A stretch of DNA of 64,000 nt from Paenibacillus sp. FSL H8-0537 (lineage in GTDB: Bacteria; Bacillota; Bacilli; Paenibacillales; Paenibacillaceae): positions 5,989,001 through 6,053,000 of the forward strand of contig NZ_CP150290.1 in the NCBI RefSeq assembly GCF_038051995.1, read 5' to 3'. Shown here piece by piece: positions 8,855 through 21,798 of the stretch. Numbering within the stretch: position 1 is the first letter of the stretch; each line of letters starts with the position of its first letter. Under the pieces are notes generated by a model. It saw only the letters and a list, made by a program, of their open reading frames with translations, was not told where the DNA came from and searched no databases. The translations under genes were made by a program, and so were the position numbers.

Positions 8855-10669
8855 ATGAGCAACGAACAGGAGTATCGCTTTCAGGTTAATTTAAGCGGAA
8901 TGATCAATATACTTTCCAACCATTTATATAGTAGTCCTAATGTTTATTTGCGTGAGCTTCTGCAAAACGCGACGGACGCTATTACAGCACGTGGACAGCT
9001 TGAGCCTGGTTTCACCGGAAATGTGACGGTAGAAATTGCAGGCAGCGGCAGCCAAATGACGATGACGGTTGAAGACAACGGCGTAGGACTGACCGAGGAG
9101 GATATTCATCAGTTTCTAGCAATGATTGGACACTCCTCCAAGGTCGGTCAGGATTTTATCGCAAAAGAAACCTCATTCATCGGCCGCTTCGGCATCGGTC
9201 TGCTGTCCTGCTTTATGGTCAGCGACGAAATCGTCGTTCTGACCCAATCGGTGAAGGGCGGACCATCCATGGAATGGCGCGGCAAACCGGACGGAACGTA
9301 TACGATTCGCCAGCTAAGCACCAAGCTATCGCCGGGAACGAAAATTTATTTGCGCTGTAAGCCAGATAGCGAGCCTTATTACGAGCCGCAAATGGTTGAA
9401 GATTTACTCTTCTATTATGGCGCCTTGCTGCCCTATCCGGTTAGGCTGCATGCAAATGGAGTCGCGAAGACGATTAATGAATCGCGGCCAGACTGGATTA
9501 TGCAGCCGGAGCTGGCGCGCGGTCGTCGCCGTGAAGTGCTTGCCTTCGGTGAAAAGCTGCTAGGGGAGCCGATGCAGGATTTCATCCCGCTCCAAACAGC
9601 GAATGGCCGAACGGGCGGTATCGCTTTTATTTTGCCGCATAGTGTGAACCTGAATACCCGCCGTTCCCACAAAGTGTATTTGAAGCAAATGCTCGTCTCG
9701 GACAAAGCGGAAAACATTTTACCGGAATGGGCATTTTTCGTCAAATGCCTCATTTGGACGGATGAGCTGCAGCCGACGGCCTCCCGCGAGCATTTTTATG
9801 AGGATGAACGGCTGGAAACGGTGCGCGAGGAGCTTGGACAATCGATTCGCAATGAGCTTATGCGCATAGGCGAGTATGAGCCGGATCGATTGAAACGCAT
9901 CATTGAGCTGCATGCTTTGTCGATGAAGGCACTCGCTGCGCAGGATGAGGATTTCCTGCAAACGATTTATCGTTGGCTAACTTTCGAAAGCACATACGGA
10001 GAACGAACATTTGGCGAGCTGCTGGCCGATAATAAGAAAATATTTTACACCTTATCTGTTGATGAATATCGTCAAATTACCCATGTTGCCGCAGCGCAAT
10101 CGATGCTCGTCCTTAATGGCGGCTATATTTATAACCATGAATTGCTTGAGCGCCTGTCGCTTCTTCTTCCTGAGCTGGATATGGAAAGGCTGCTGCCGGA
10201 AGATGTATCGCTGTCCTTCGAGGATTTAACGAACGAGGAGCGCAATCAATATTACGAGCGCATTCGCCTTGCGGATGGAGCTTTGCAGCGCTTCCGCTGC
10301 CAAATTCAGCTTAAACGGTTTGCTCCAGCAGAGCTTCCCGCCCTATATACGCTGTCAAAGGAATCATCATCGCTGCGCTCCTTGGAAAAAGCGAAGGAGA
10401 ACAGCTCCGATCTGCTCGCCTCCGTTCTTGGCAACCTTGGCACAAGTTTTACGGAGTCGGCGTATTCGACGCTTTATTTCAACTTAAACAATCCGCTCGT
10501 GCAGAAGATTTTCAACAGCGCCGACAACGAAATGTTCTCGACTGCTGCCCAAATGCTGTACACCAACGCCTTGCTGATGGGTCATTATCCAATGACGCGC
10601 CAGGAGCTTGGCGTACTCGGACAAGGCATGGTTAAATTTATCGACTGGGGACTTTCCTCGAATGCCTAA
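8855..10669 (+). CDS. HSP90-family ATPase (HtpG-like, divergent)
   Basis: A 604-residue protein with an N-terminal GHKL ATPase fold. E34, N38 and D41 in LRELLQNATDAI match the catalytic Glu, Mg-binding Asn and adenine-side helix of HSP90. DNGVGL (D74) and GRFGIGLLSCFM (110-121) are the ATP-lid and glycine motifs. The rest follows HSP90 order (middle domain with RRSHKVYLKQMLVSD, then ADELQPTASREHF-like) but is clearly not canonical HtpG: the C-terminal region carries no obvious HtpG dimer motif. AAGGAG precedes the ATG. It heads an operon with two paralogous helical-repeat proteins 27 bp and further downstream. Client proteins are unknown. I am confident of the ATPase family, less so of a chaperone role. 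Confidence 0.9.
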   Translation: MSNEQEYRFQVNLSGMINILSNHLYSSPNVYLRELLQNATDAITARGQLEPGFTGNVTVEIAGSGSQMTMTVEDNGVGLTEEDIHQFLAMIGHSSKVGQDFIAKETSFIGRFGIGLLSCFMVSDEIVVLTQSVKGGPSMEWRGKPDGTYTIRQLSTKLSPGTKIYLRCKPDSEPYYEPQMVEDLLFYYGALLPYPVRLHANGVAKTINESRPDWIMQPELARGRRREVLAFGEKLLGEPMQDFIPLQTANGRTGGIAFILPHSVNLNTRRSHKVYLKQMLVSDKAENILPEWAFFVKCLIWTDELQPTASREHFYEDERLETVREELGQSIRNELMRIGEYEPDRLKRIIELHALSMKALAAQDEDFLQTIYRWLTFESTYGERTFGELLADNKKIFYTLSVDEYRQITHVAAAQSMLVLNGGYIYNHELLERLSLLLPELDMERLLPEDVSLSFEDLTNEERNQYYERIRLADGALQRFRCQIQLKRFAPAELPALYTLSKESSSLRSLEKAKENSSDLLASVLGNLGTSFTESAYSTLYFNLNNPLVQKIFNSADNEMFSTAAQMLYTNALLMGHYPMTRQELGVLGQGMVKFIDWGLSSNA

Positions 10670-10696
10670 AAGCTTAATACACAAGGAGGAACATAA

Positions 10697-11764
10697 ATGG
10701 AGCTCGATTTTGAAGATTTAATGGATCAGGCCTATGATTTGCCCCCCGGCGCCGCTAAGCTTGAGGTGCTGGAGGCTGCCGTGAGAATCGCAGATGCAGA
10801 AGGCGATATCGATAACGCCTTTGAGGCGAGAGGCGAAATTGTACAGACGGCTATTTTTCACGGTTACCCGCTAAAAGCGATTATCGCTTTCTCTTGGCAG
10901 TTGGGACAATATGACCAAGACCCCGACAATTACGACAGCAGTGATTTAATGTGGTCCTACAAATGGATCGTCGGCAACATTTCGAATTTCCCGGAAATTC
11001 CGATGGCGCAAATTCAGGAGCTTGTCGAGGATTTGGGCAAACGCTATAAGGAGCACGGCTTCAGCCGCCGCACTTATTTATATTACCGCTCTCGCCTTGC
11101 CTTAAGCCATGGAAAGCTGGATGAAGCAAAGGATTTTCTCGAGCAGCTAATGAAGGTCGAACGGGACTATATGACCGATTGCATCGCCTGCGAGCAAAAT
11201 CATATCGTTGAGCTTTATGCGCAATTGGGCGAAGATGAACAGGCATTAAAGGCGGCAGAGCCGATTTTATCGGGCAAAATGAAATGCGCTGAGGTGCCTC
11301 ATATTACGCTGCCGCATTTGCTTTCACCTTTGCTGCGTCAAGGCTCTCCGGAGGAAGCCCAAAAGCTTCATACGAAAGGCTATCGACTGGTCAAAGGCAA
11401 GCGCGATCTGTTCGAAAGCGTCGCACAGCATATTAACTATTTGACGGATATCAATCCGGCGAAGGCGGTCGAGGTCGTCGAGCTGCATATGGCATTTAGC
11501 CTTGATCATGAGAATCCTTATGAGGTTATGCGATTTAATCTGTTCACAGCGCGGCTGCTGAAGAAGCTGCTTGAAGAAGGCTCCGAAACGAAGCTTCGTC
11601 TGCCAGCCTTCTTCCTCGCTGCGCATGAGGATACAAGTTTGCCCGCGCTTGCTGCGCACTTTGAAGCTCTCGCCCTATCGGCGGCACAACGTTTTGATGC
11701 TCGCAATGGCAATGATTATTATAGTAAAAATGCCGCTAGCTACTTACAAGTATTTAACAAATAG
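10697..11764 (+). CDS. Helical-repeat (TPR-like) protein, paralogue A, with Cys/His cluster
   Basis: A 355-residue soluble, probably all-helical protein. Helix pairs such as AKLEVLEAAVRIADAEGDID and KLDEAKDFLEQLM look like tetratricopeptide-type units. A C-x2-C at residues 162/165 (DCIACEQNH) is followed by C197 and H202 (KMKCAEVPH), which could bind zinc. The later part has YRLVKGKRDLFESVAQHI. From memory, similar sequences with the same CxxC and RL-x-GN/KRDL elements occur in actinobacterial TPR proteins; I could not check this. AAGGAGG lies before the ATG. It sits 27 bp after the HSP90 gene and 14 bp before its paralogue, so the three form one operon. Confidence 0.85.
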   Translation: MELDFEDLMDQAYDLPPGAAKLEVLEAAVRIADAEGDIDNAFEARGEIVQTAIFHGYPLKAIIAFSWQLGQYDQDPDNYDSSDLMWSYKWIVGNISNFPEIPMAQIQELVEDLGKRYKEHGFSRRTYLYYRSRLALSHGKLDEAKDFLEQLMKVERDYMTDCIACEQNHIVELYAQLGEDEQALKAAEPILSGKMKCAEVPHITLPHLLSPLLRQGSPEEAQKLHTKGYRLVKGKRDLFESVAQHINYLTDINPAKAVEVVELHMAFSLDHENPYEVMRFNLFTARLLKKLLEEGSETKLRLPAFFLAAHEDTSLPALAAHFEALALSAAQRFDARNGNDYYSKNAASYLQVFNK

Positions 11765-11778
11765 ACAGAGGAGCATCA

Positions 11779-12837
11779 TTGGAAATGGATTTTGATGACT
11801 TAATGAACCAGGCGCTTGATCTCCCTCCCGGTGCTGCCCAGCTGGAGGTACTGGAGGCTGCCGTTCGACTGGCTGATGCGGAGGGCGATATTGAAAATGG
11901 CTTTTATGCACGCCAGCACCTCGTGAAGACCGCTGCTTTTCACGGTTTTCCGCTGAAAGCGATTATCGCCTTCTCCTGGCAGCTAGGTCAATATGATCGA
12001 AACCCTGAGGAATACGATGGCAGCAGCTTGTTATGGCGATATAAGTGGATCGTCGGCACGATATCGAATTTTCCAGAAATTCCGATGTCGCAAATTCAAG
12101 AGCTGCTTGAGGATTTGGGCAAACGTTATAAAGAGCATGGCTACAGCAAACGCACCTATTTATATTTCCGCTCCCGTCTCGCCCTTGATCATGGCAAGCT
12201 CGATGAAGCCAAGGCTTATCTTCAACAGTTTACGAAAGAGGAACGGGATCATATGAGCGACTGCAACGCCTGTGAGCAGCATTGTATTGTTTGGCTTCAT
12301 GCTAGACTGGGCGAGGATGAGCAAGCATTAAAGGCGGCAGAGCCGATCTTATCAGGGAACATGAAATGTGCTGAGGTGCCTCATATTACGCTGCCAGAGC
12401 TGCTGTTGCCTATGCAGCGCTTGGGCCTTCACGAGGAAGCGAAAAAAGCGCAAACGAAAGGCTATCGCCTTGTCAAAGGCAAACGCGATCTGCTGGAAAG
12501 CGTCGCCCAGCATATTGAATATTTGACGATGACCAAGCCCGCGAAAGCGGTCGAGGTCGTAGAGCTGCATTTGCCGTTCACCCTCGACCATGAGAACCCT
12601 TATGAAATTATGCTGTTTCATCTAAATACGGCTCAGCTGCTGAAGAAGCTTATTCAAGAAGGATCGCAGGTTAAGCTCCGGCTTCCAGCGTCCTTCCTTG
12701 CAGCTCATGAAGATACCAGCCTTCCGGCGCTCGCCGCTCATTTTGAAGGTCTCGCCATAGCATCCGCACAACGTTATGATGCCCGCAACGGTAATGATTT
12801 TTATAGTAAAAAGGCAGCAGACAAGCTGCTCGTGTAG
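11779..12837 (+). CDS. Helical-repeat (TPR-like) protein, paralogue B, with Cys/His cluster
   Basis: A 352-residue tandem paralogue of the preceding gene, alike over its whole length and identical in many blocks (DLPPGAAxLEVLEAAVR, FHGFPLKAIIAFSWQLGQYD, CAEVPHITLP). The Cys/His cluster is kept at the same positions (C162, C165, C197, H202). The start is TTG at 11779: AGAGGAG lies 5 bp upstream, and the first residues MEMDFDDLMNQ then align with MELDFEDLMDQ of paralogue A. The in-frame ATG at 11785 would drop two conserved residues. Such close tandem copies point to a duplication that may allow a heterodimer or two client sets; this is inference. Confidence 0.85.
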   Translation: MEMDFDDLMNQALDLPPGAAQLEVLEAAVRLADAEGDIENGFYARQHLVKTAAFHGFPLKAIIAFSWQLGQYDRNPEEYDGSSLLWRYKWIVGTISNFPEIPMSQIQELLEDLGKRYKEHGYSKRTYLYFRSRLALDHGKLDEAKAYLQQFTKEERDHMSDCNACEQHCIVWLHARLGEDEQALKAAEPILSGNMKCAEVPHITLPELLLPMQRLGLHEEAKKAQTKGYRLVKGKRDLLESVAQHIEYLTMTKPAKAVEVVELHLPFTLDHENPYEIMLFHLNTAQLLKKLIQEGSQVKLRLPASFLAAHEDTSLPALAAHFEGLAIASAQRYDARNGNDFYSKKAADKLLV

Positions 12838-15228: not shown

Positions 15229-18200
15229 TTAGATTAAACCGGATGTTTTCAATAGGCGCTCGATGATTGCTGCTACCTCTGCGCGCGTCATATTCGCCTT
15301 TGGAGCCAGCTGCGTGTCGCTTCTGCCTGTAACAATTTCGGCTTGCAGCACATCAGCAATACCCGCAGTTGCCCAAGCGGACGTTTTTGCAGCATCATTA
15401 TAGCGGCCTAGCAACTCTCCTGACTCTACCGCCGGGAGTGTGTCCTTCAATCCTGTGATCTTCATTGCTTTGGCGATAATCGCCATCGCCTGCTCACGGG
15501 TGATTTTGTCGTTCGGACGGAACGAGCCGTCCTCAAACCCATTAATTAAACCAGAAGCGCTCGCTGTTTGAACAGCAGAGCCATACCAATCAGCTGATTG
15601 GACATCGGTAAATGAGGCCGCACTATTTTCAAGCTTAAGCCCCAGCCCCCTCACGATAATCGCCGCAAACTCTGCACGCGTAATATCTTTGTTTGGACTG
15701 AATAGCTCATTGCCCGTTCCATTGATGACAAGACGTGAGCCCATATTATTGACCGACTCCTTGGCCCAGTGATTGGCAACATCCTTAAATTCAAGCGGGT
15801 GCCAGACAATCGAATAAGCACTATTGGTCAAGCTGTTGATTTTGGCAAAATATTGACCCTTATCCTCTAAAACCTTAGTTGGAACGTGGCGAACCGTACC
15901 GTCCGGCTCGACTACGATACCGGTTGTAATTTTATTCGGATCAATGCCAGCAGGCAAGGCGACAGTCCGTTCTACATATGCACTAAACTTGGTAATAGGG
16001 ATGATCTGATTGTTGTATACCGCGCTCACTGCAAAATCAAGTGAAGGTGCCGCCAACGTAAATCCACCTTTGTCTGCTGATCCCTGTACAATTTTCATCA
16101 TATTATCCGTTAAAGTACCGATCTCAAGCCGAAGCGTAATATCGTTCAGCGAAACTGCTTGACCCAACTGTTTGGAGATTGCATCAATGTTGATTTGCTG
16201 AGCAGGCACCGTATAGGTTGCCCGATCGGTTTTGAGCTCAAGAACAGCTTGCTTTTGCTCCATATTTTTAATCATTTGACCTGTCAGCTCGCCAATTACG
16301 GCGTTTGAGCTGTTGCCAAGAAGCGGAATAGTAATAATCGCACCTTGACCTTCTGCAGTCAGCTTCTGTTCCAGCAAGGCTTGATCGACTGTAATCGTAG
16401 TCGTAGTGCTGCCATTTACATTAGATGTAGCTGAACTTCCGATTCTCTCCTGACGCCCATTAATCCAGATGTCTACGCCTGTACCAGATGTTCCTGAGGA
16501 TGAGGAAGACGAAGAACCTGGCTGTGTCGTTTCACCGCCGCTTGTAGGCGCTGATGGCGTAACGGTATTGGACGATACGGATGCTTCACTAGAGCCTGCA
16601 CCATTAATCGCTTTTACCGTGAAGGAATAGCTCGTCCCGTTCGTGAGATCTGTAACGGTAATCGGACTAACGAGTCCCGTTGCTACTGTATGTCCCTCTG
16701 CATCTACAACCTCATAGCCAGTAATGATACTTCCGCCGTTATCTGTTGGTGCTGTGAATGAGACCGTTGCTTGACCATTTCCAGCTGCGGCGGATACCGC
16801 TGTCGGTGCTTCCGCAACCGTTATTGGCGTCACCGACCGCTCATTGGAAGCATCGCTCAGGTCGCTTGCAAAAACGGCTTTTACTACAAAATAGTAGGTT
16901 GTGCCATTCGTTAAGCCAGTTGCTTCATAGCTGTATACTGACTGGCCAACAGTGGTTACCTCTGTATTGTAGGCCCCAGATTGGAGAGCCATATACACTT
17001 TGTAGCCATCTGCTCCATCTACTGGATTCCATTGCAGATTCGCCTTGGCATTATCAGAGTTAATAGCTTGCAGGACAGGTGCCTCGTAATTGGCAGGCGT
17101 CGTATCGCTAATGGTGACCGCCAACGTCTGCGCTGCTCCCGCGTTAAAGTTAAATGAGAGATTTGTTGTACCTTCCGCTTGTTGTGCCAAATATGATTTG
17201 CTGATTGTCACTACGTTGCCAGTAATCGTATAGTCTACCATTGGTGTCAGAGCTGACATACCGTTTGTGATACCGCTCAATGTGTTTCCGTTCAGTGTTA
17301 GAGTGACGGACACATCTGCTTGCGCCGATATTTCTTTATCGAAGCTCGCTGTCGTCTGGCTCAGGCTGCTATCCTGTGGTGCCGGAATGGTAGAGTCACT
17401 GATCGAAACTGCCAGTATCTGCGCTGTGCCTCCACTGAAGTTGAATGACAAATTCGATGTGCCTATAGCTTGTTGTGCCAAATACGTTTTGCTTATGGTC
17501 ACTACGTTACCCACAAGCGTATAATCTGTCATTGGCGTTAGAGCTGACATACCATTCGTGATACCGCTCAATGTATTGCCGTTCAGTGTCAACGTTACAG
17601 CTACATCCGCTTGCGCTGATGTTTCTTTATCGAAGCTCGCTGTCGTCTGGCTGAGTTGGCTGTTCTGCGGCGTCGTATCGCTCACCGTTACCGCCAACGT
17701 CTGTGCTGCTCCTGCGCTGAAATTAAACGCGAGGTTCGTCGTGCCTACTGACTGCTGAGCCAAATATGCTTTGTTGATCGTCACTACATTGCCCACAACC
17801 GTGTAGTCCGTTCCCGCTGTTAGCGTTGCTACACCATTCGTGATGCTGCTCAACGTATTGCCGTTCAGCGTCAACGTTACAGCTACATCCGCTTGCGCTG
17901 ATGTTTCTTTATCGAAGCTCGCTGTTGTCTGGCTTAATTGGCTGTTTTGCGGCGTTGTATCGCTCACCGTTACTGCCAACGTCTGCGCTGCTCCTGCACT
18001 GAAATTAAACGCTAGGTTCGTCGTGCCTACTGACTGTTGCGACAAATATGCTTTGCTGATCGTCACTACATTGCCCACAACCGTGTAATCTGTTCCCGCC
18101 GTTAGCGTTGCTACGCCATTCGTGATGCTGCTCAGCGTATTGCCGTTCAGCGTCAACGTTACAGCTACATCCGCTTGCGACGAGGTTTCTTTATCAAAGC

Positions 18201-21200
18201 TCGCTGTTGTCTGGCTCAATTGGCTGTTTTGCGGCGTTGTGTCACTTACCGTTACCGCCAACGTTTGCGCTGCTCCTGCACTGAAATTAAACGCGAGGTT
18301 CGTCGTGCCTACTGCTTGCTGCGCCAAATATGCTTTGTCGATCGTCACTACGTTACCCACAACCGTGTAGTCTGTTCCCGCTGTTAGCGTTGCTACACCA
18401 TTCGTGATGCTGCTTAGCGTATTGCCGTTCAGCGTCAACGTTACAGCTACATCCGCTTGCGACGAGGTTTCTTTATCAAAGCTCGCTGTCGTCTGGCTCA
18501 ATTGGCTGTTCTGCGGCGTCGTGTCGCTCACCGTTACCGCCAATGTCTGCGCTGCTCCTGCACTGAAATTAAACGCGAGGTTCGTTGTGCCTACTGCTTG
18601 CTGCGCCAAATATGCTTTGTTGATCGTCACTACGTTGCCCACAACCGTGTAGTCCGTTCCCGCTGTTAGCGTTACTACACCATTCGTGATGCTGCTCAGC
18701 GTATTGCCGTTCAGCGTCAAAGTTACAGCTACATCCGCTTGCGCTGATGTTTCTTTATCAAAGCTTGCTGTTGTCTGGCTAAGCTGGCTATTTTGCGGCG
18801 TTGTGTCGCTCACCGTTACTGCCAACGTCTGCGCTGCTCCTCCGCTGAAATTAAACGCGAGGTTCGTCGTGCCTACTGCTTGCTGAGCCAAATATGCTTT
18901 GTTGATCGTCACTACGTTACCCACAACCATGTAGTCCGTTCCCGCTGTTAGCGTTGCTACGCCATTCGTGATGCTGCTCAGCGTATTGCCGTTCAGCGTC
19001 AAGGTTACAGCTACATCCGCTTGCGCTGATGTTTCTTTATCGAAGCTCGCTGTTGTCTGGCTCAATTGGCTGTTTTGCGGCGTCGTATCGCTCACCGTTA
19101 CCGCCAACGTCTGCGCTGCTCCTTCGCTGAAATTAAACGCGAGGTTCGTCGTGCCTACAGACTGCTGCGCCAAATACGACTTTTTAATCGTTACCGTGTT
19201 GCCCGCAACTGTGTAATCGGTTCCCGCTGTCAGCGTCACTCCGCCATTCGTGATGCTGCTCAGCGTATTGCCGTTCAGCGTCATCGTTACTGCTACATCC
19301 ACCTGCGCCGATGTTTCTTTATCAAAGCTTGCCGTACCAGGGGTAATTGCCGATGAAGAAACTACCGCTTCCGAGGTCATAACCAGTTTGTTAGGACCGG
19401 ATATAACAATTTCGTTATTGACGGTCATTAATGCAGATGCTCTCTTGGTAGCATCTAAAGTAGAAGTTGCTTGCCAAGTAGCACCGTCATCATTTGAATA
19501 AAAAATGTCCTCTGATTCATAACTGCTATCTGTAAAAAGTCCATAAAGCATATTGCCTTTTTTCCCTATAAATGTCGAACCACCATATGCTGAATATCCT
19601 CCTGTTAAACCAGGAGAAGACCATGTCACAAGATCCGCACTCGTACGGGTAAACATTTCATAGGTTAATGAATCGTACCCAAGCAAAATATATTTGCTTC
19701 CATCAAAAATTATATTGGTTACAAAATCGGTTGAATTAGGATAACTGCTAGAGTGATTTACCCAATTTATCCCATCAGTTGAAGTCAAAATTGCTAATTC
19801 AATCACATTTCCAAAATTATCATTAGCATTTCCTAACGCTACAAATTGATTATTAATATAAGCAACCGAGGCTAAATAGTTCAACGTATTGGTAGGCAAA
19901 GTCTGCTCAGTCCAAGTTACACCGTCCACCGATGTCTCGATCACAGCCTTATTGGTATAACCTGTAGCCACAAATATCCCACTGCCATAAGCAACATCAT
20001 TAAAAAATTCATTGCCAAGTAAGCTCCCTTGCAGGCTCCAACTTGTACCGTTACTGGAGGTAGCCAATTTTGTTGCGCCGTGATAAGGTCCGGCAACTGC
20101 CACGTACTTGCCATTTCCGTGCGCCACTGATGTAAAAGCATCTGCTTGTCCCGAAATACTTTGCTTCGTCCACGCAGACAGGTCATTCGAAGTCCAAATT
20201 GTTCCTTCTTTTCCCAGCTGCCCAACGGCTATATATTTGGTACCGTCATAAATAATTTCATTAAAATTCCCGCCCCATTTATAGCTCCAATTCGAGCCCG
20301 TATCTGAGACGCTCATCCCTTCATTGCCAAACAAGAAATATTTTCCATTTATAAAGGAAGCGTTTTGATCAACAAACTCTCGTTCAAAAGGCTGCAGCGT
20401 CCAAGTTGTCGCATCTGTTGACGTATAAACAGACCCATATTTGCTTCCCTCGCTGCCAAACAAATAATAATGCGTTCCATCATAAAAGCCTTTTCTCATT
20501 TGGCCGGTTGGATTTGACCCAACTTGTAAAGACGGGGCACCCATTAAGGTAAAAGTGGCGAGATCGGTAGAGGTCCAGATATAGCCGCTAATATCTGCCA
20601 TAAAATAACGGTCATTCATCCATTCCAGAAAATTGGCTCCATTAGCGGGGAGTGAGGCTGGGGTCACTGGCTGAACGAAAGTCCAAGTCGTGCCATTAGT
20701 CGTCGAATAAATTTTGCCTTCCTCACTCGACACACCGAGGCGCGCCCCATTGTTTCCCACTGTAACTTGAGTGATGGATTTGTCAGAAGGCAATCCAGTA
20801 GGTACAACCGTTGTCCAAGTAGTACCATTGGTAGAGGTAACATACTTCCCTTTCGAGAGTGCATAAAAGGCTCCAGCTCCATTAAAGGTAAAATATTCGA
20901 CATTAGAAATCTGGGTAGAAATCCCCGAGGTTCGCTGTGTCCAATTCACGCCATCCGTGGAGCTTAAAATAACCCCTTCAGAACCAACGGCAACAAAGAC
21001 GCCATTGCCATAAGCAACGCCATAAAAAATAAAGCTTGCTGGAGCAATTACTCCACTATAATTAGAATCGGCCTTTGTTTTTACGTTTTCCCAATGCTCG
21101 GCATCTGTAGATTTAATAATTGCCCCATCATATCCAACCGCGATGTATAGTCCATTACCATAGGCTCCAGCTGTCATAGATTTCGTAGGCAACGTCTCTC

Positions 21201-21333
21201 CGCTTTTTTTTGTAAAGGTGTCCGGCGTAGGAGCTGCATAAATGGAAGGGATACAAACTTGAAGCATGATGATAAAAGCGAGCATAAAAATTCCTATTCG
21301 TGGCCATATCGATGCGTGATGCCTTTTTGTCAT
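15229..21333 (-). CDS. Giant SLH-anchored protein: beta-propeller, eight X2-type repeats, two FnIII, three SLH
   Basis: 2034 residues, exported and held on the cell wall. After a signal peptide (IGIFMLAFIIMLQVCIPSIYA) residues ~40-660 are repeats of the form TSTDG-x-x-W-T, as in BNR/Ycf48-like propellers. Residues ~664-1415 are eight copies of a ~94-residue module with FDK, LNGNTL, ITNG, L-x-x-x-x-DYT, YLAQQ and F-x-F, which I read as carbohydrate-binding domain X2. Then come two fibronectin III domains (~1420-1600), a Ser-rich linker, a domain of unknown function, and three SLH domains (from ~1850) that bind wall polymer. I take the ATG at 21333, with GGAGG 9 bp before it; a TTG at 21381 has no ribosome site. 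No catalytic domain is visible, so adhesion or substrate binding is the likely role. Confidence 0.88.
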   Translation of the reverse strand: MTKRHHASIWPRIGIFMLAFIIMLQVCIPSIYAAPTPDTFTKKSGETLPTKSMTAGAYGNGLYIAVGYDGAIIKSTDAEHWENVKTKADSNYSGVIAPASFIFYGVAYGNGVFVAVGSEGVILSSTDGVNWTQRTSGISTQISNVEYFTFNGAGAFYALSKGKYVTSTNGTTWTTVVPTGLPSDKSITQVTVGNNGARLGVSSEEGKIYSTTNGTTWTFVQPVTPASLPANGANFLEWMNDRYFMADISGYIWTSTDLATFTLMGAPSLQVGSNPTGQMRKGFYDGTHYYLFGSEGSKYGSVYTSTDATTWTLQPFEREFVDQNASFINGKYFLFGNEGMSVSDTGSNWSYKWGGNFNEIIYDGTKYIAVGQLGKEGTIWTSNDLSAWTKQSISGQADAFTSVAHGNGKYVAVAGPYHGATKLATSSNGTSWSLQGSLLGNEFFNDVAYGSGIFVATGYTNKAVIETSVDGVTWTEQTLPTNTLNYLASVAYINNQFVALGNANDNFGNVIELAILTSTDGINWVNHSSSYPNSTDFVTNIIFDGSKYILLGYDSLTYEMFTRTSADLVTWSSPGLTGGYSAYGGSTFIGKKGNMLYGLFTDSSYESEDIFYSNDDGATWQATSTLDATKRASALMTVNNEIVISGPNKLVMTSEAVVSSSAITPGTASFDKETSAQVDVAVTMTLNGNTLSSITNGGVTLTAGTDYTVAGNTVTIKKSYLAQQSVGTTNLAFNFSEGAAQTLAVTVSDTTPQNSQLSQTTASFDKETSAQADVAVTLTLNGNTLSSITNGVATLTAGTDYMVVGNVVTINKAYLAQQAVGTTNLAFNFSGGAAQTLAVTVSDTTPQNSQLSQTTASFDKETSAQADVAVTLTLNGNTLSSITNGVVTLTAGTDYTVVGNVVTINKAYLAQQAVGTTNLAFNFSAGAAQTLAVTVSDTTPQNSQLSQTTASFDKETSSQADVAVTLTLNGNTLSSITNGVATLTAGTDYTVVGNVVTIDKAYLAQQAVGTTNLAFNFSAGAAQTLAVTVSDTTPQNSQLSQTTASFDKETSSQADVAVTLTLNGNTLSSITNGVATLTAGTDYTVVGNVVTISKAYLSQQSVGTTNLAFNFSAGAAQTLAVTVSDTTPQNSQLSQTTASFDKETSAQADVAVTLTLNGNTLSSITNGVATLTAGTDYTVVGNVVTINKAYLAQQSVGTTNLAFNFSAGAAQTLAVTVSDTTPQNSQLSQTTASFDKETSAQADVAVTLTLNGNTLSGITNGMSALTPMTDYTLVGNVVTISKTYLAQQAIGTSNLSFNFSGGTAQILAVSISDSTIPAPQDSSLSQTTASFDKEISAQADVSVTLTLNGNTLSGITNGMSALTPMVDYTITGNVVTISKSYLAQQAEGTTNLSFNFNAGAAQTLAVTISDTTPANYEAPVLQAINSDNAKANLQWNPVDGADGYKVYMALQSGAYNTEVTTVGQSVYSYEATGLTNGTTYYFVVKAVFASDLSDASNERSVTPITVAEAPTAVSAAAGNGQATVSFTAPTDNGGSIITGYEVVDAEGHTVATGLVSPITVTDLTNGTSYSFTVKAINGAGSSEASVSSNTVTPSAPTSGGETTQPGSSSSSSSGTSGTGVDIWINGRQERIGSSATSNVNGSTTTTITVDQALLEQKLTAEGQGAIITIPLLGNSSNAVIGELTGQMIKNMEQKQAVLELKTDRATYTVPAQQINIDAISKQLGQAVSLNDITLRLEIGTLTDNMMKIVQGSADKGGFTLAAPSLDFAVSAVYNNQIIPITKFSAYVERTVALPAGIDPNKITTGIVVEPDGTVRHVPTKVLEDKGQYFAKINSLTNSAYSIVWHPLEFKDVANHWAKESVNNMGSRLVINGTGNELFSPNKDITRAEFAAIIVRGLGLKLENSAASFTDVQSADWYGSAVQTASASGLINGFEDGSFRPNDKITREQAMAIIAKAMKITGLKDTLPAVESGELLGRYNDAAKTSAWATAGIADVLQAEIVTGRSDTQLAPKANMTRAEVAAIIERLLKTSGLI
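17095..19345 (-). repeat. Tandem 282-bp coding repeats (X2-type modules)
   Basis: Eight units. The six central ones keep an exact 282-bp period and are nearly identical at DNA level. The first unit (near 19340) and the last two (near 17100-17640) are more diverged, as expected from recent expansion of the centre by unequal crossing over. Assemblies may collapse or miscount this array. Confidence 0.9.
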
Positions 21334-21798
21334 AGCTGAGTGCCTCCAGAATTTTAATAAGTTGCTGTCTATGTCTTGCAAGCTCTTTCAAAAACCCGAT
21401 TCCTAATATATGCAGGCTCGTACATCCCGCCGGACTCACCCTCCTCTATGCTTCATTTATACTCTCTCTGATGACGCCACCCAATAGCTTCTGTGTCATA
21501 ATTAAGTCAGGAAATTTCTAGCTATGAATAAATTCGACAAATTACAGCATATTCCTCCCAAAAAAAGAGGGATTCAGGCCTGAATTTTTATCGAAATGTG
21601 TCGAATTTTCAATCGAGCATAAACCGCGACTGGCAAGGCTTTATCCAAGAAAATAGCCTAGCATTTTCCCCACCTTTTTTCACCATACAGCTTCGACATA
21701 ATTATTTTAAAAACACTTCATAAAATTGTTACGGAAAACGTGATTTTCACCGATATATACTTTGTTAGATTTACTTTTAGAAAAGAGGGCGGGATTTT
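21334..21798. promoter_or_regulatory. Divergent control region of the SLH protein and the chemoreceptor, with Spo0A-like boxes
   Basis: Three exact TGTCGAA or TTCGACA heptamers lie at 21533-21539, 21599-21605 and 21692-21698. The first two sit in the inverted repeat AAATTCGACA / TGTCGAATTT. A perfect 14-bp palindrome ATTCAGGCCTGAAT is at 21572-21585. ACCGATAT at 21749-21756 resembles the -10 of sigma-D (GCCGATAT), which drives chemotaxis genes, but the -35 TACG 15 bp upstream is poor. Confidence 0.45.

What the first reader, a model, noticed from the sequence alone, without database searches (positions are those of the whole stretch)
8855..12837. HSP90-like ATPase in an operon with two paralogous helical-repeat proteins carrying a conserved Cys/His cluster
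In eukaryotes HSP90 works with TPR co-chaperones; bacterial HtpG has no dedicated ones. Here a divergent HSP90-family gene is followed, at operon spacing, by two TPR-like paralogues whose C-x2-C (162/165), C197 and H202 are kept in both. The sequence shows the linkage, the ATPase motifs and the conserved cluster. From memory, related TPR-like sequences with the same CxxC and RL-x-KRDL blocks exist in actinobacteria, some near an HSP90-family gene, but I could not verify that. If it holds, this would be a portable chaperone/co-chaperone module.
Basis: partly seen in the sequence, partly recalled or inferred. Interest (0 to 1): 0.72.

Follow-up and report, generated by a model that had tools for sequence, protein, structure and literature searches.

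The report
Bacterial Hsp90 with dedicated TPR partner
A little-studied branch of bacterial Hsp90 chaperones almost always comes with its own helical-repeat partner protein carrying three conserved cysteines, which looks like a dedicated helper of a kind so far known mainly from eukaryotes.

Summary
Gene 1 (8855-10669) is a three-domain HSP90 of NCBIfam NF010683 (720.8 bits, cut-off 455), separate from the genome's HtpG-type gene. Genes 2 and 3 (10697-11764, 11779-12837) are TPR-superhelix paralogues, the only two copies found in the genome. In three surveys (198 genomes of the window's order, 42 of the Laceyella order, 199 Planctomycetota) 77 genomes carry this HSP90 over its cut-off. All 77 also carry the TPR family, adjacent in 74. 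Of 139 genomes of the window's order with only sub-cut-off HSP90 matches, 136 have no TPR match. Named records extend the pair to Listeria and Streptomyces. Across 40 neighbourhoods only these two families recur broadly, and their trees agree (r = 0.90). C162, C165 and C197 are kept or lost together (106 of 110 have all); H202 is not conserved (77 of 110). None of 40 such HSP90s ends in EEVD, so docking cannot be the eukaryotic tail-clamp way. Best reading: an ATP-driven HSP90 with a dedicated TPR co-chaperone or client adaptor holding a metal site. Linkage, co-occurrence and conservation are shown; binding, metal and function are inferred.

The parts
8855..10669 (+). HSP90-family ATPase (NF010683/PRK14083), 604 aa, with N, middle and C-terminal domains
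8954..8956 (+). codon of E34, aligned to the N-domain Glu of TRAP1 (catalytic role recalled); same in 40 of 40 family members aligned
9785..9787 (+). codon of R311 in 'SRE', aligned to the SRE of TRAP1 (catalytic role recalled); same in 40 of 40
10683..10689 (+). AAGGAGG, Shine-Dalgarno-like, before TPR1
   Evidence: by eye
10697..11764 (+). TPR1, helical-repeat partner, 355 aa
11180..11191 (+). TPR1 C162-x2-C165 at the N-terminal end of helix 163-177
11285..11302 (+). TPR1 C197 to H202, in the loop between helices 180-191 and 205-214; C197 and P201 conserved, H202 variable
11693..11713 (+). TPR1 F-D-x-R-N-G-N motif; R336 in 110 of 110, N337 in 108 of 110
11779..12837 (+). TPR2, tandem paralogue, 352 aa, 76% identical to TPR1, same three Cys and His

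Best explanation
The three genes form one operon encoding a dedicated chaperone pair: a full HSP90-family ATPase of the NF010683 branch, and a partner made for it, a rod of 18 helices with the TPR superhelix fold, here present as two tandem copies. SHOWN: near-obligate co-occurrence, gene adjacency with frequent stop-start overlap, tree agreement, intact ATPase residues, three cysteines kept or lost together, and a C-terminal R-N motif that is nearly invariant. INFERRED: HSP90 binds and hydrolyses ATP and cycles as a dimer; the TPR protein docks on it without the eukaryotic EEVD tail, which is absent, and either brings clients or sets the ATPase cycle; the three cysteines hold a metal, probably zinc, that fixes the loops around helices 163-191.
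Against: No physical or functional evidence. TPR folds bind many things, and the top fold matches (MalT, APC5, NprR/Rap) are not Hsp90 co-chaperones; the Hsp70-tail-binding Tom71 appears only at rank 49. No EEVD tail in 40 of 40 HSP90s. Exceptions: HSP90 pieces without TPR in G401 and G728; TPR without HSP90 in G726 (a 1.4 Mb genome) and in the Actinomyces plasmid record L082; TPR pieces alone in G051 and G118. Among 14 genomes found through the TPR, 3 have the two genes on different contigs (G198, G206, G207), and several genomes hold extra TPR copies far from HSP90. Tree agreement is partly expected from shared ancestry. No heat-shock CIRCE site in the window.
Confidence: 0.62

Rival explanations
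1. The TPR protein is the dedicated client, not the helper: HSP90 is kept to fold or activate this one helical-repeat protein, which has its own job (signalling, scaffolding).
For: TPR is rarely found without the HSP90 (exceptions G726, L082 and degraded pieces), as expected if it cannot fold alone; it is duplicated in 6 of 40 neighbourhoods and is 1000 aa or longer in the actinobacterial records, as clients may diversify; extra unlinked copies exist.
Against: The HSP90 is not found without the TPR in 77 of 77 over-cut-off genomes, and a full HSP90 with one client would be unusual; the TPR model is a confidently predicted compact fold. Co-occurrence cannot separate client from co-chaperone.
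Confidence: 0.18
2. A stress- or redox-sensing switch: the three cysteines release metal on oxidation, and the TPR then frees or recruits the HSP90, in the way Hsp33 uses a zinc-cysteine switch (recalled).
For: Three cysteines kept or lost together; fourth position variable, so the site may be labile.
Against: No redox data; such cysteines fit a plain structural zinc site just as well.
Confidence: 0.1
3. Part of an anti-phage or other conflict system.
For: Patchy distribution and apparent transfer as a pair; a distant HSP90-like protein on a Pseudanabaena plasmid sits beside TIR and TPR genes.
Against: PADLOC gives only ATPase-domain-sized matches for HSP90 and none for the TPRs; neighbours change from locus to locus and no third partner recurs.
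Confidence: 0.05

Closest known systems
HtpG (NF003555), canonical bacterial Hsp90
   Same: three-domain HSP90 fold and ATPase residues
   Different: window protein scores 204.5 bits against a 371 cut-off for HtpG; the genome has a separate HtpG-type gene, and genomes with only such genes lack the TPR (136 of 139)
NF010683/PRK14083 'HSP90 family protein'; possibly one of the hsp90B/hsp90C paralogues of Chen 2006 and Press 2013
   Same: window protein is over the curated cut-off; Chen 2006 lists a second, 615-aa HTPG in S. coelicolor (PMC1525184, passages)
   Different: the passages read name no partner protein; assignment to group B or C was not tested
Eukaryotic TPR co-chaperones of Hsp90 (Hop/Sti1, FKBP51/52, PP5)
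   Same: TPR fold beside an HSP90 machine
   Different: no EEVD tail for a carboxylate clamp; a three-cysteine site; gene-linked; a single-sequence search of the PDB with TPR1 gave no co-chaperone
MalT domain III / RRNPP (NprR, Rap) TPR superhelices
   Different: 11-12% identity; TPR1 has no further domain; three-cysteine site
Second HSP90-like/TPR pair of gamma-proteobacteria (Xanthomonas plasmid, P. aeruginosa record, Salmonella record)
   Same: HSP90-like gene followed by a TPR-type gene, with CxxC in all three of these partners
   Different: the three HSP90-like proteins score 277-293 bits, under the NF010683 cut-off of 455; partners are about 770 aa, and profile comparison with our family gives 6.9% probability

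Membership tests
HSP90 superfamily | GHKL N-domain with catalytic Glu and nucleotide-site Asn/Asp/Gly residues | tested here: met
   E34, N38, D41, D74, G76, G78, G113, G115, T162 identical in 40 of 40; aligned to TRAP1
HSP90 superfamily | middle domain with catalytic Arg | tested here: met
   R311 in 40 of 40 and opposite SRE of TRAP1; role recalled
HSP90 superfamily | C-terminal dimerisation domain | tested here: met
NF010683 (PRK14083) | score over curated cut-off 455 | tested here: met
   720.8 bits
HtpG (NF003555) | score over curated cut-off 371 | tested here: not met
   204.5 bits
TPR superhelix proteins | tandem helix pairs forming a superhelix | tested here: met
Eukaryotic-type TPR co-chaperone of Hsp90 | binds MEEVD tail of Hsp90 | tested here: not met
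   no EEVD within the last 12 residues of 40 of 40 NF010683-type proteins
Hsp90 co-chaperone (functional sense) | binds HSP90 and alters its cycle or client loading | not testable with these tools
   single-chain structure prediction only; no binding data
Zinc-binding protein | four-ligand metal site | tested here: inconclusive
   three Cys kept or lost together (106 of 110), fourth position H/E/Q/A/D; no coordinates to measure

The most novel reading that the evidence does not exclude
One whole branch of bacterial Hsp90, present in at least three phyla, runs with an obligate, dedicated TPR co-chaperone that arose independently of the eukaryotic EEVD-TPR system, docks by a different surface, and is built round a three-cysteine metal site that may let it sense zinc or oxidative stress.
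Probability: 0.45. Interest if true: 0.88.

Novelty: new variant of a known kind. Interest (0 to 1): 0.76.

Why it matters
Press et al. 2013 (PMC3708813, passages read) state that no obligate Hsp90 co-chaperones are identified in bacteria, and set the hsp90B and hsp90C paralogues aside. Here one uncharacterised HSP90 branch has a partner so tightly tied to it that presence of one predicts the other in nearly every genome surveyed. This gives a small, genetically simple system (two gene families) in which to ask what a TPR partner does for an Hsp90, and a test of whether TPR co-chaperoning evolved more than once. It also turns genes mostly annotated 'hypothetical protein' into named candidates: the Listeria locus with the same layout appears to be lmo0942-lmo0941-lmo0940 (inferred from gene order and from lmo0942 lying next to fri in PMC3534079, passage). 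lmo0942 is listed among heat-shock genes (PMC10393277, passage), while lmo0941 is called a hypothetical protein of unknown function (PMC6901971, passages).

Tried and rejected
Defence system: PADLOC matches are only to the shared ATPase domain; put last. Third conserved gene: clustering of ORFs in 40 neighbourhoods gave HSP90 in 39 and TPR in 40; the clusters of 32, 16 and 10 loci are shadow ORFs inside these genes (68 of 70, 16 of 17 and 12 of 12 members); the next two families are in 8 loci each, one an ABC-transporter ATPase by eye, the other not identified. Heat-shock control: no CIRCE operator with up to 3 mismatches; promoter scan uninformative. Homology of the gamma-proteobacterial TPR partners with our family: not detected (only 4 sequences in that profile). 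Orphan TPR copies as a clue to function: the neighbours scanned are unrelated to each other. Downstream genes of unlinked Planctomycetota HSP90s: unrelated families. Actinobacterial whole-genome survey: not possible, no genome handle could be had; evidence there is 3 Streptomyces plasmid records, one high-GC 'bacteriophage' scaffold with the pair and one Actinomyces record with TPR alone. Named rows dropped before counts: two 43-54 residue matches at E about 6e-4 (G222, G234) and two weak ones (G708, G731). The 299-genome phylum survey found both families in the same 4 genomes, but these 4 are already among the 55, so I do not add them. In Foldseek and VIA lists no eukaryotic Hsp90 co-chaperone stood at the top; this does not exclude one.
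Full report
WHAT IS THERE. Three co-directional genes lie at 8855-10669, 10697-11764 and 11779-12837 with gaps of 27 and 14 bases and Shine-Dalgarno-like stretches before each by eye. The first product is NF010683/PRK14083 'HSP90 family protein' at 720.8 bits (cut-off 455), against 204.5 bits for HtpG (cut-off 371). The genome has a separate HSP90 gene of HtpG type at C1:1340959 (27% identity). The second and third are 76% identical paralogues and the only two copies found in the 7.0 Mb genome. The source is a Paenibacillus by its nearest proteins (92% to P. algorifonticola).

HOW TIGHT IS THE LINK. Window's order: HSP90 over cut-off in 55 of 198 genomes; TPR in 58 of 198; all 55 shared, TPR downstream on the same strand in 55 of 55 with 9-61 bases between model matches (Fisher p about 8e-46, which ignores relatedness). 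The 3 TPR-only genomes: G101, whose HSP90 is split in two frames beside the TPR; G051, a piece with two stops; G118, a 56-residue piece. Laceyella order: HSP90 in 15 of 42, TPR in all 15 and adjacent in all 15, one of them (G712) with TPR pieces between HSP90 and an intact copy; TPR alone in G726 (1.4 Mb genome); a partial HSP90 alone in G728; weak TPR matches in G708 and G731. Planctomycetota: HSP90 over cut-off in 7 of 199 and TPR in exactly those 7, leaving out weak 43-54 residue matches in G222 and G234; adjacent in G199, G201, G257 and, with TPR upstream, G289; apart in G229, G317 and G374. G401 has HSP90 pieces at contig ends and no TPR found. Total 77 of 77 over-cut-off genomes with TPR among 439 examined, 74 adjacent. 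In 14 genome loci found by TPR alone, HSP90 lies directly upstream in 10 of 14 loci, is over cut-off somewhere in 14 of 14 genomes and is next to some TPR copy in 11 of 14.

SPECIFICITY. In the window's order 139 genomes have only sub-cut-off HSP90 matches (presumably HtpG; not scanned one by one); 136 of these have no TPR match. The TPR therefore follows the NF010683 branch, not HSP90s in general.

BREADTH. Named carriers of the TPR: Paenibacillus, Gorillibacterium and Saccharibacillus, Gemmataceae and Isosphaeraceae, Laceyella, Seinonella and other Planctomycetota. Listeria monocytogenes has HSP90-TPR-TPR between fri and an SMI1 gene; Streptomyces globosus has a TPR protein of 1033 aa next to HSP90. 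The 6 plasmid-record hits of 36-40% identity and full length all have the TPR adjacent. Five of the six were scanned and score 713-853 bits on NF010683; the second Listeria record was not. A high-GC 'bacteriophage' scaffold (L186, 645 bits) carries the pair too. A search with the Streptomyces protein gave 1922 matches, which may include unrelated TPR proteins; the 120 listed are Streptomyces wherever a name is given.

MODULE. Clustering ORFs of 40 neighbourhoods, TPR recurs in 40 and HSP90 in 39 (Actinomyces L082 lacks it); apart from shadow ORFs no other family exceeds 8 loci. In 12 of 39 loci with both genes the longest-start ORFs overlap by 4 bases. HSP90 and TPR tree distances correlate at 0.90, 0 of 2000 permutations reaching it (part of this is common ancestry). 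Two deep pair lineages exist within the window's order, one grouping with Laceyella and Seinonella in both trees and found even in G191 of the window's own genus, which suggests transfer of the intact pair. Tandem TPR copies occur in 6 of 40 neighbourhoods and, on a tree without support values shown, arose separately in about five lineages.

MECHANISM. I read it as an ATP-driven HSP90 with a dedicated TPR co-chaperone or client adaptor. Steps shown: gene coupling, co-occurrence, folds by prediction, residue conservation. Steps inferred: binding, effect on the ATPase cycle or client choice, metal. The main rival, that TPR is the sole client, makes nearly the same genomic prediction and needs the bench.

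LITERATURE. Press 2013 (PMC3708813, passages): bacterial paralogues hsp90A, B and C; no identified obligate co-chaperone in bacteria; B and C ignored. Chen 2006 (PMC1525184, section 10 and passages): three HTPG groups, two copies in S. coelicolor. A 2021 study (PMC8082187, passages): no apparent Hop, Aha1 or p23 orthologues in eubacteria. PMC3603443 (passages): no evidence for a specific function of HtpG in a streptomycete. Ten searches of the held library listed no paper on a bacterial HSP90-TPR operon among the titles and abstract openings shown; several lists were capped, and subscription journals and preprints are not held, so this is not proof of absence.

Searches were added; they confirmed the shadow ORFs, scanned four more HSP90-type proteins and confirmed Sel1 repeats in Laceyella.

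Noticed in passing
L189 (7965-12188), L190 (3054-7295), L187 (7983-12130): A second, more distant HSP90-like gene in Xanthomonas vasicola, Pseudomonas aeruginosa and Salmonella records is also followed at 2-36 bases by a TPR-type gene of about 770 aa with CxxC and CPQSxC motifs; a Nonomuraea relative, with no HSP90 found in 5 kb either side, lacks most of these cysteines. The P. aeruginosa locus looks like PA1068/PA1069 (recalled).
   Followed up: partly
L188 (5225-10807): Pseudanabaena plasmid: an 877-aa HSP90-like protein whose C-terminal part weakly matches a TIR effector domain (E 0.001, under cut-off), beside a TIR gene and a TPR gene; could be a conflict system.
   Followed up: partly
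L186: INPHARED record MT837560.1 'Bacteriophage sp.' carries an HSP90-TPR pair and, by eye, a sigma-factor-like ORF; it looks like a bacterial, probably actinobacterial, fragment.
   Followed up: partly
L070 (6579-12122): Planctomycetota locus with four tandem TPR copies behind HSP90; copies 3 and 4 have lost all three cysteines together.
   Followed up: partly
L077 (7983-10127), L072: In Laceyella the TPR protein is 714 aa; the L077 copy carries Sel1 repeats in its C-terminal half (Pfam Sel1 1.6e-32).
   Followed up: partly
P0129; L082 (4220-4660): A relative of unnamed source fuses the TPR core to a YbjN domain (PF10722), and the Actinomyces TPR gene in L082 has a separate YbjN-domain gene upstream.
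   Followed up: no
window 15229-21381: A 2050-aa ORF on the minus strand with near-identical tandem repeats and an SLH-like C-terminus, both by eye.
   Followed up: no
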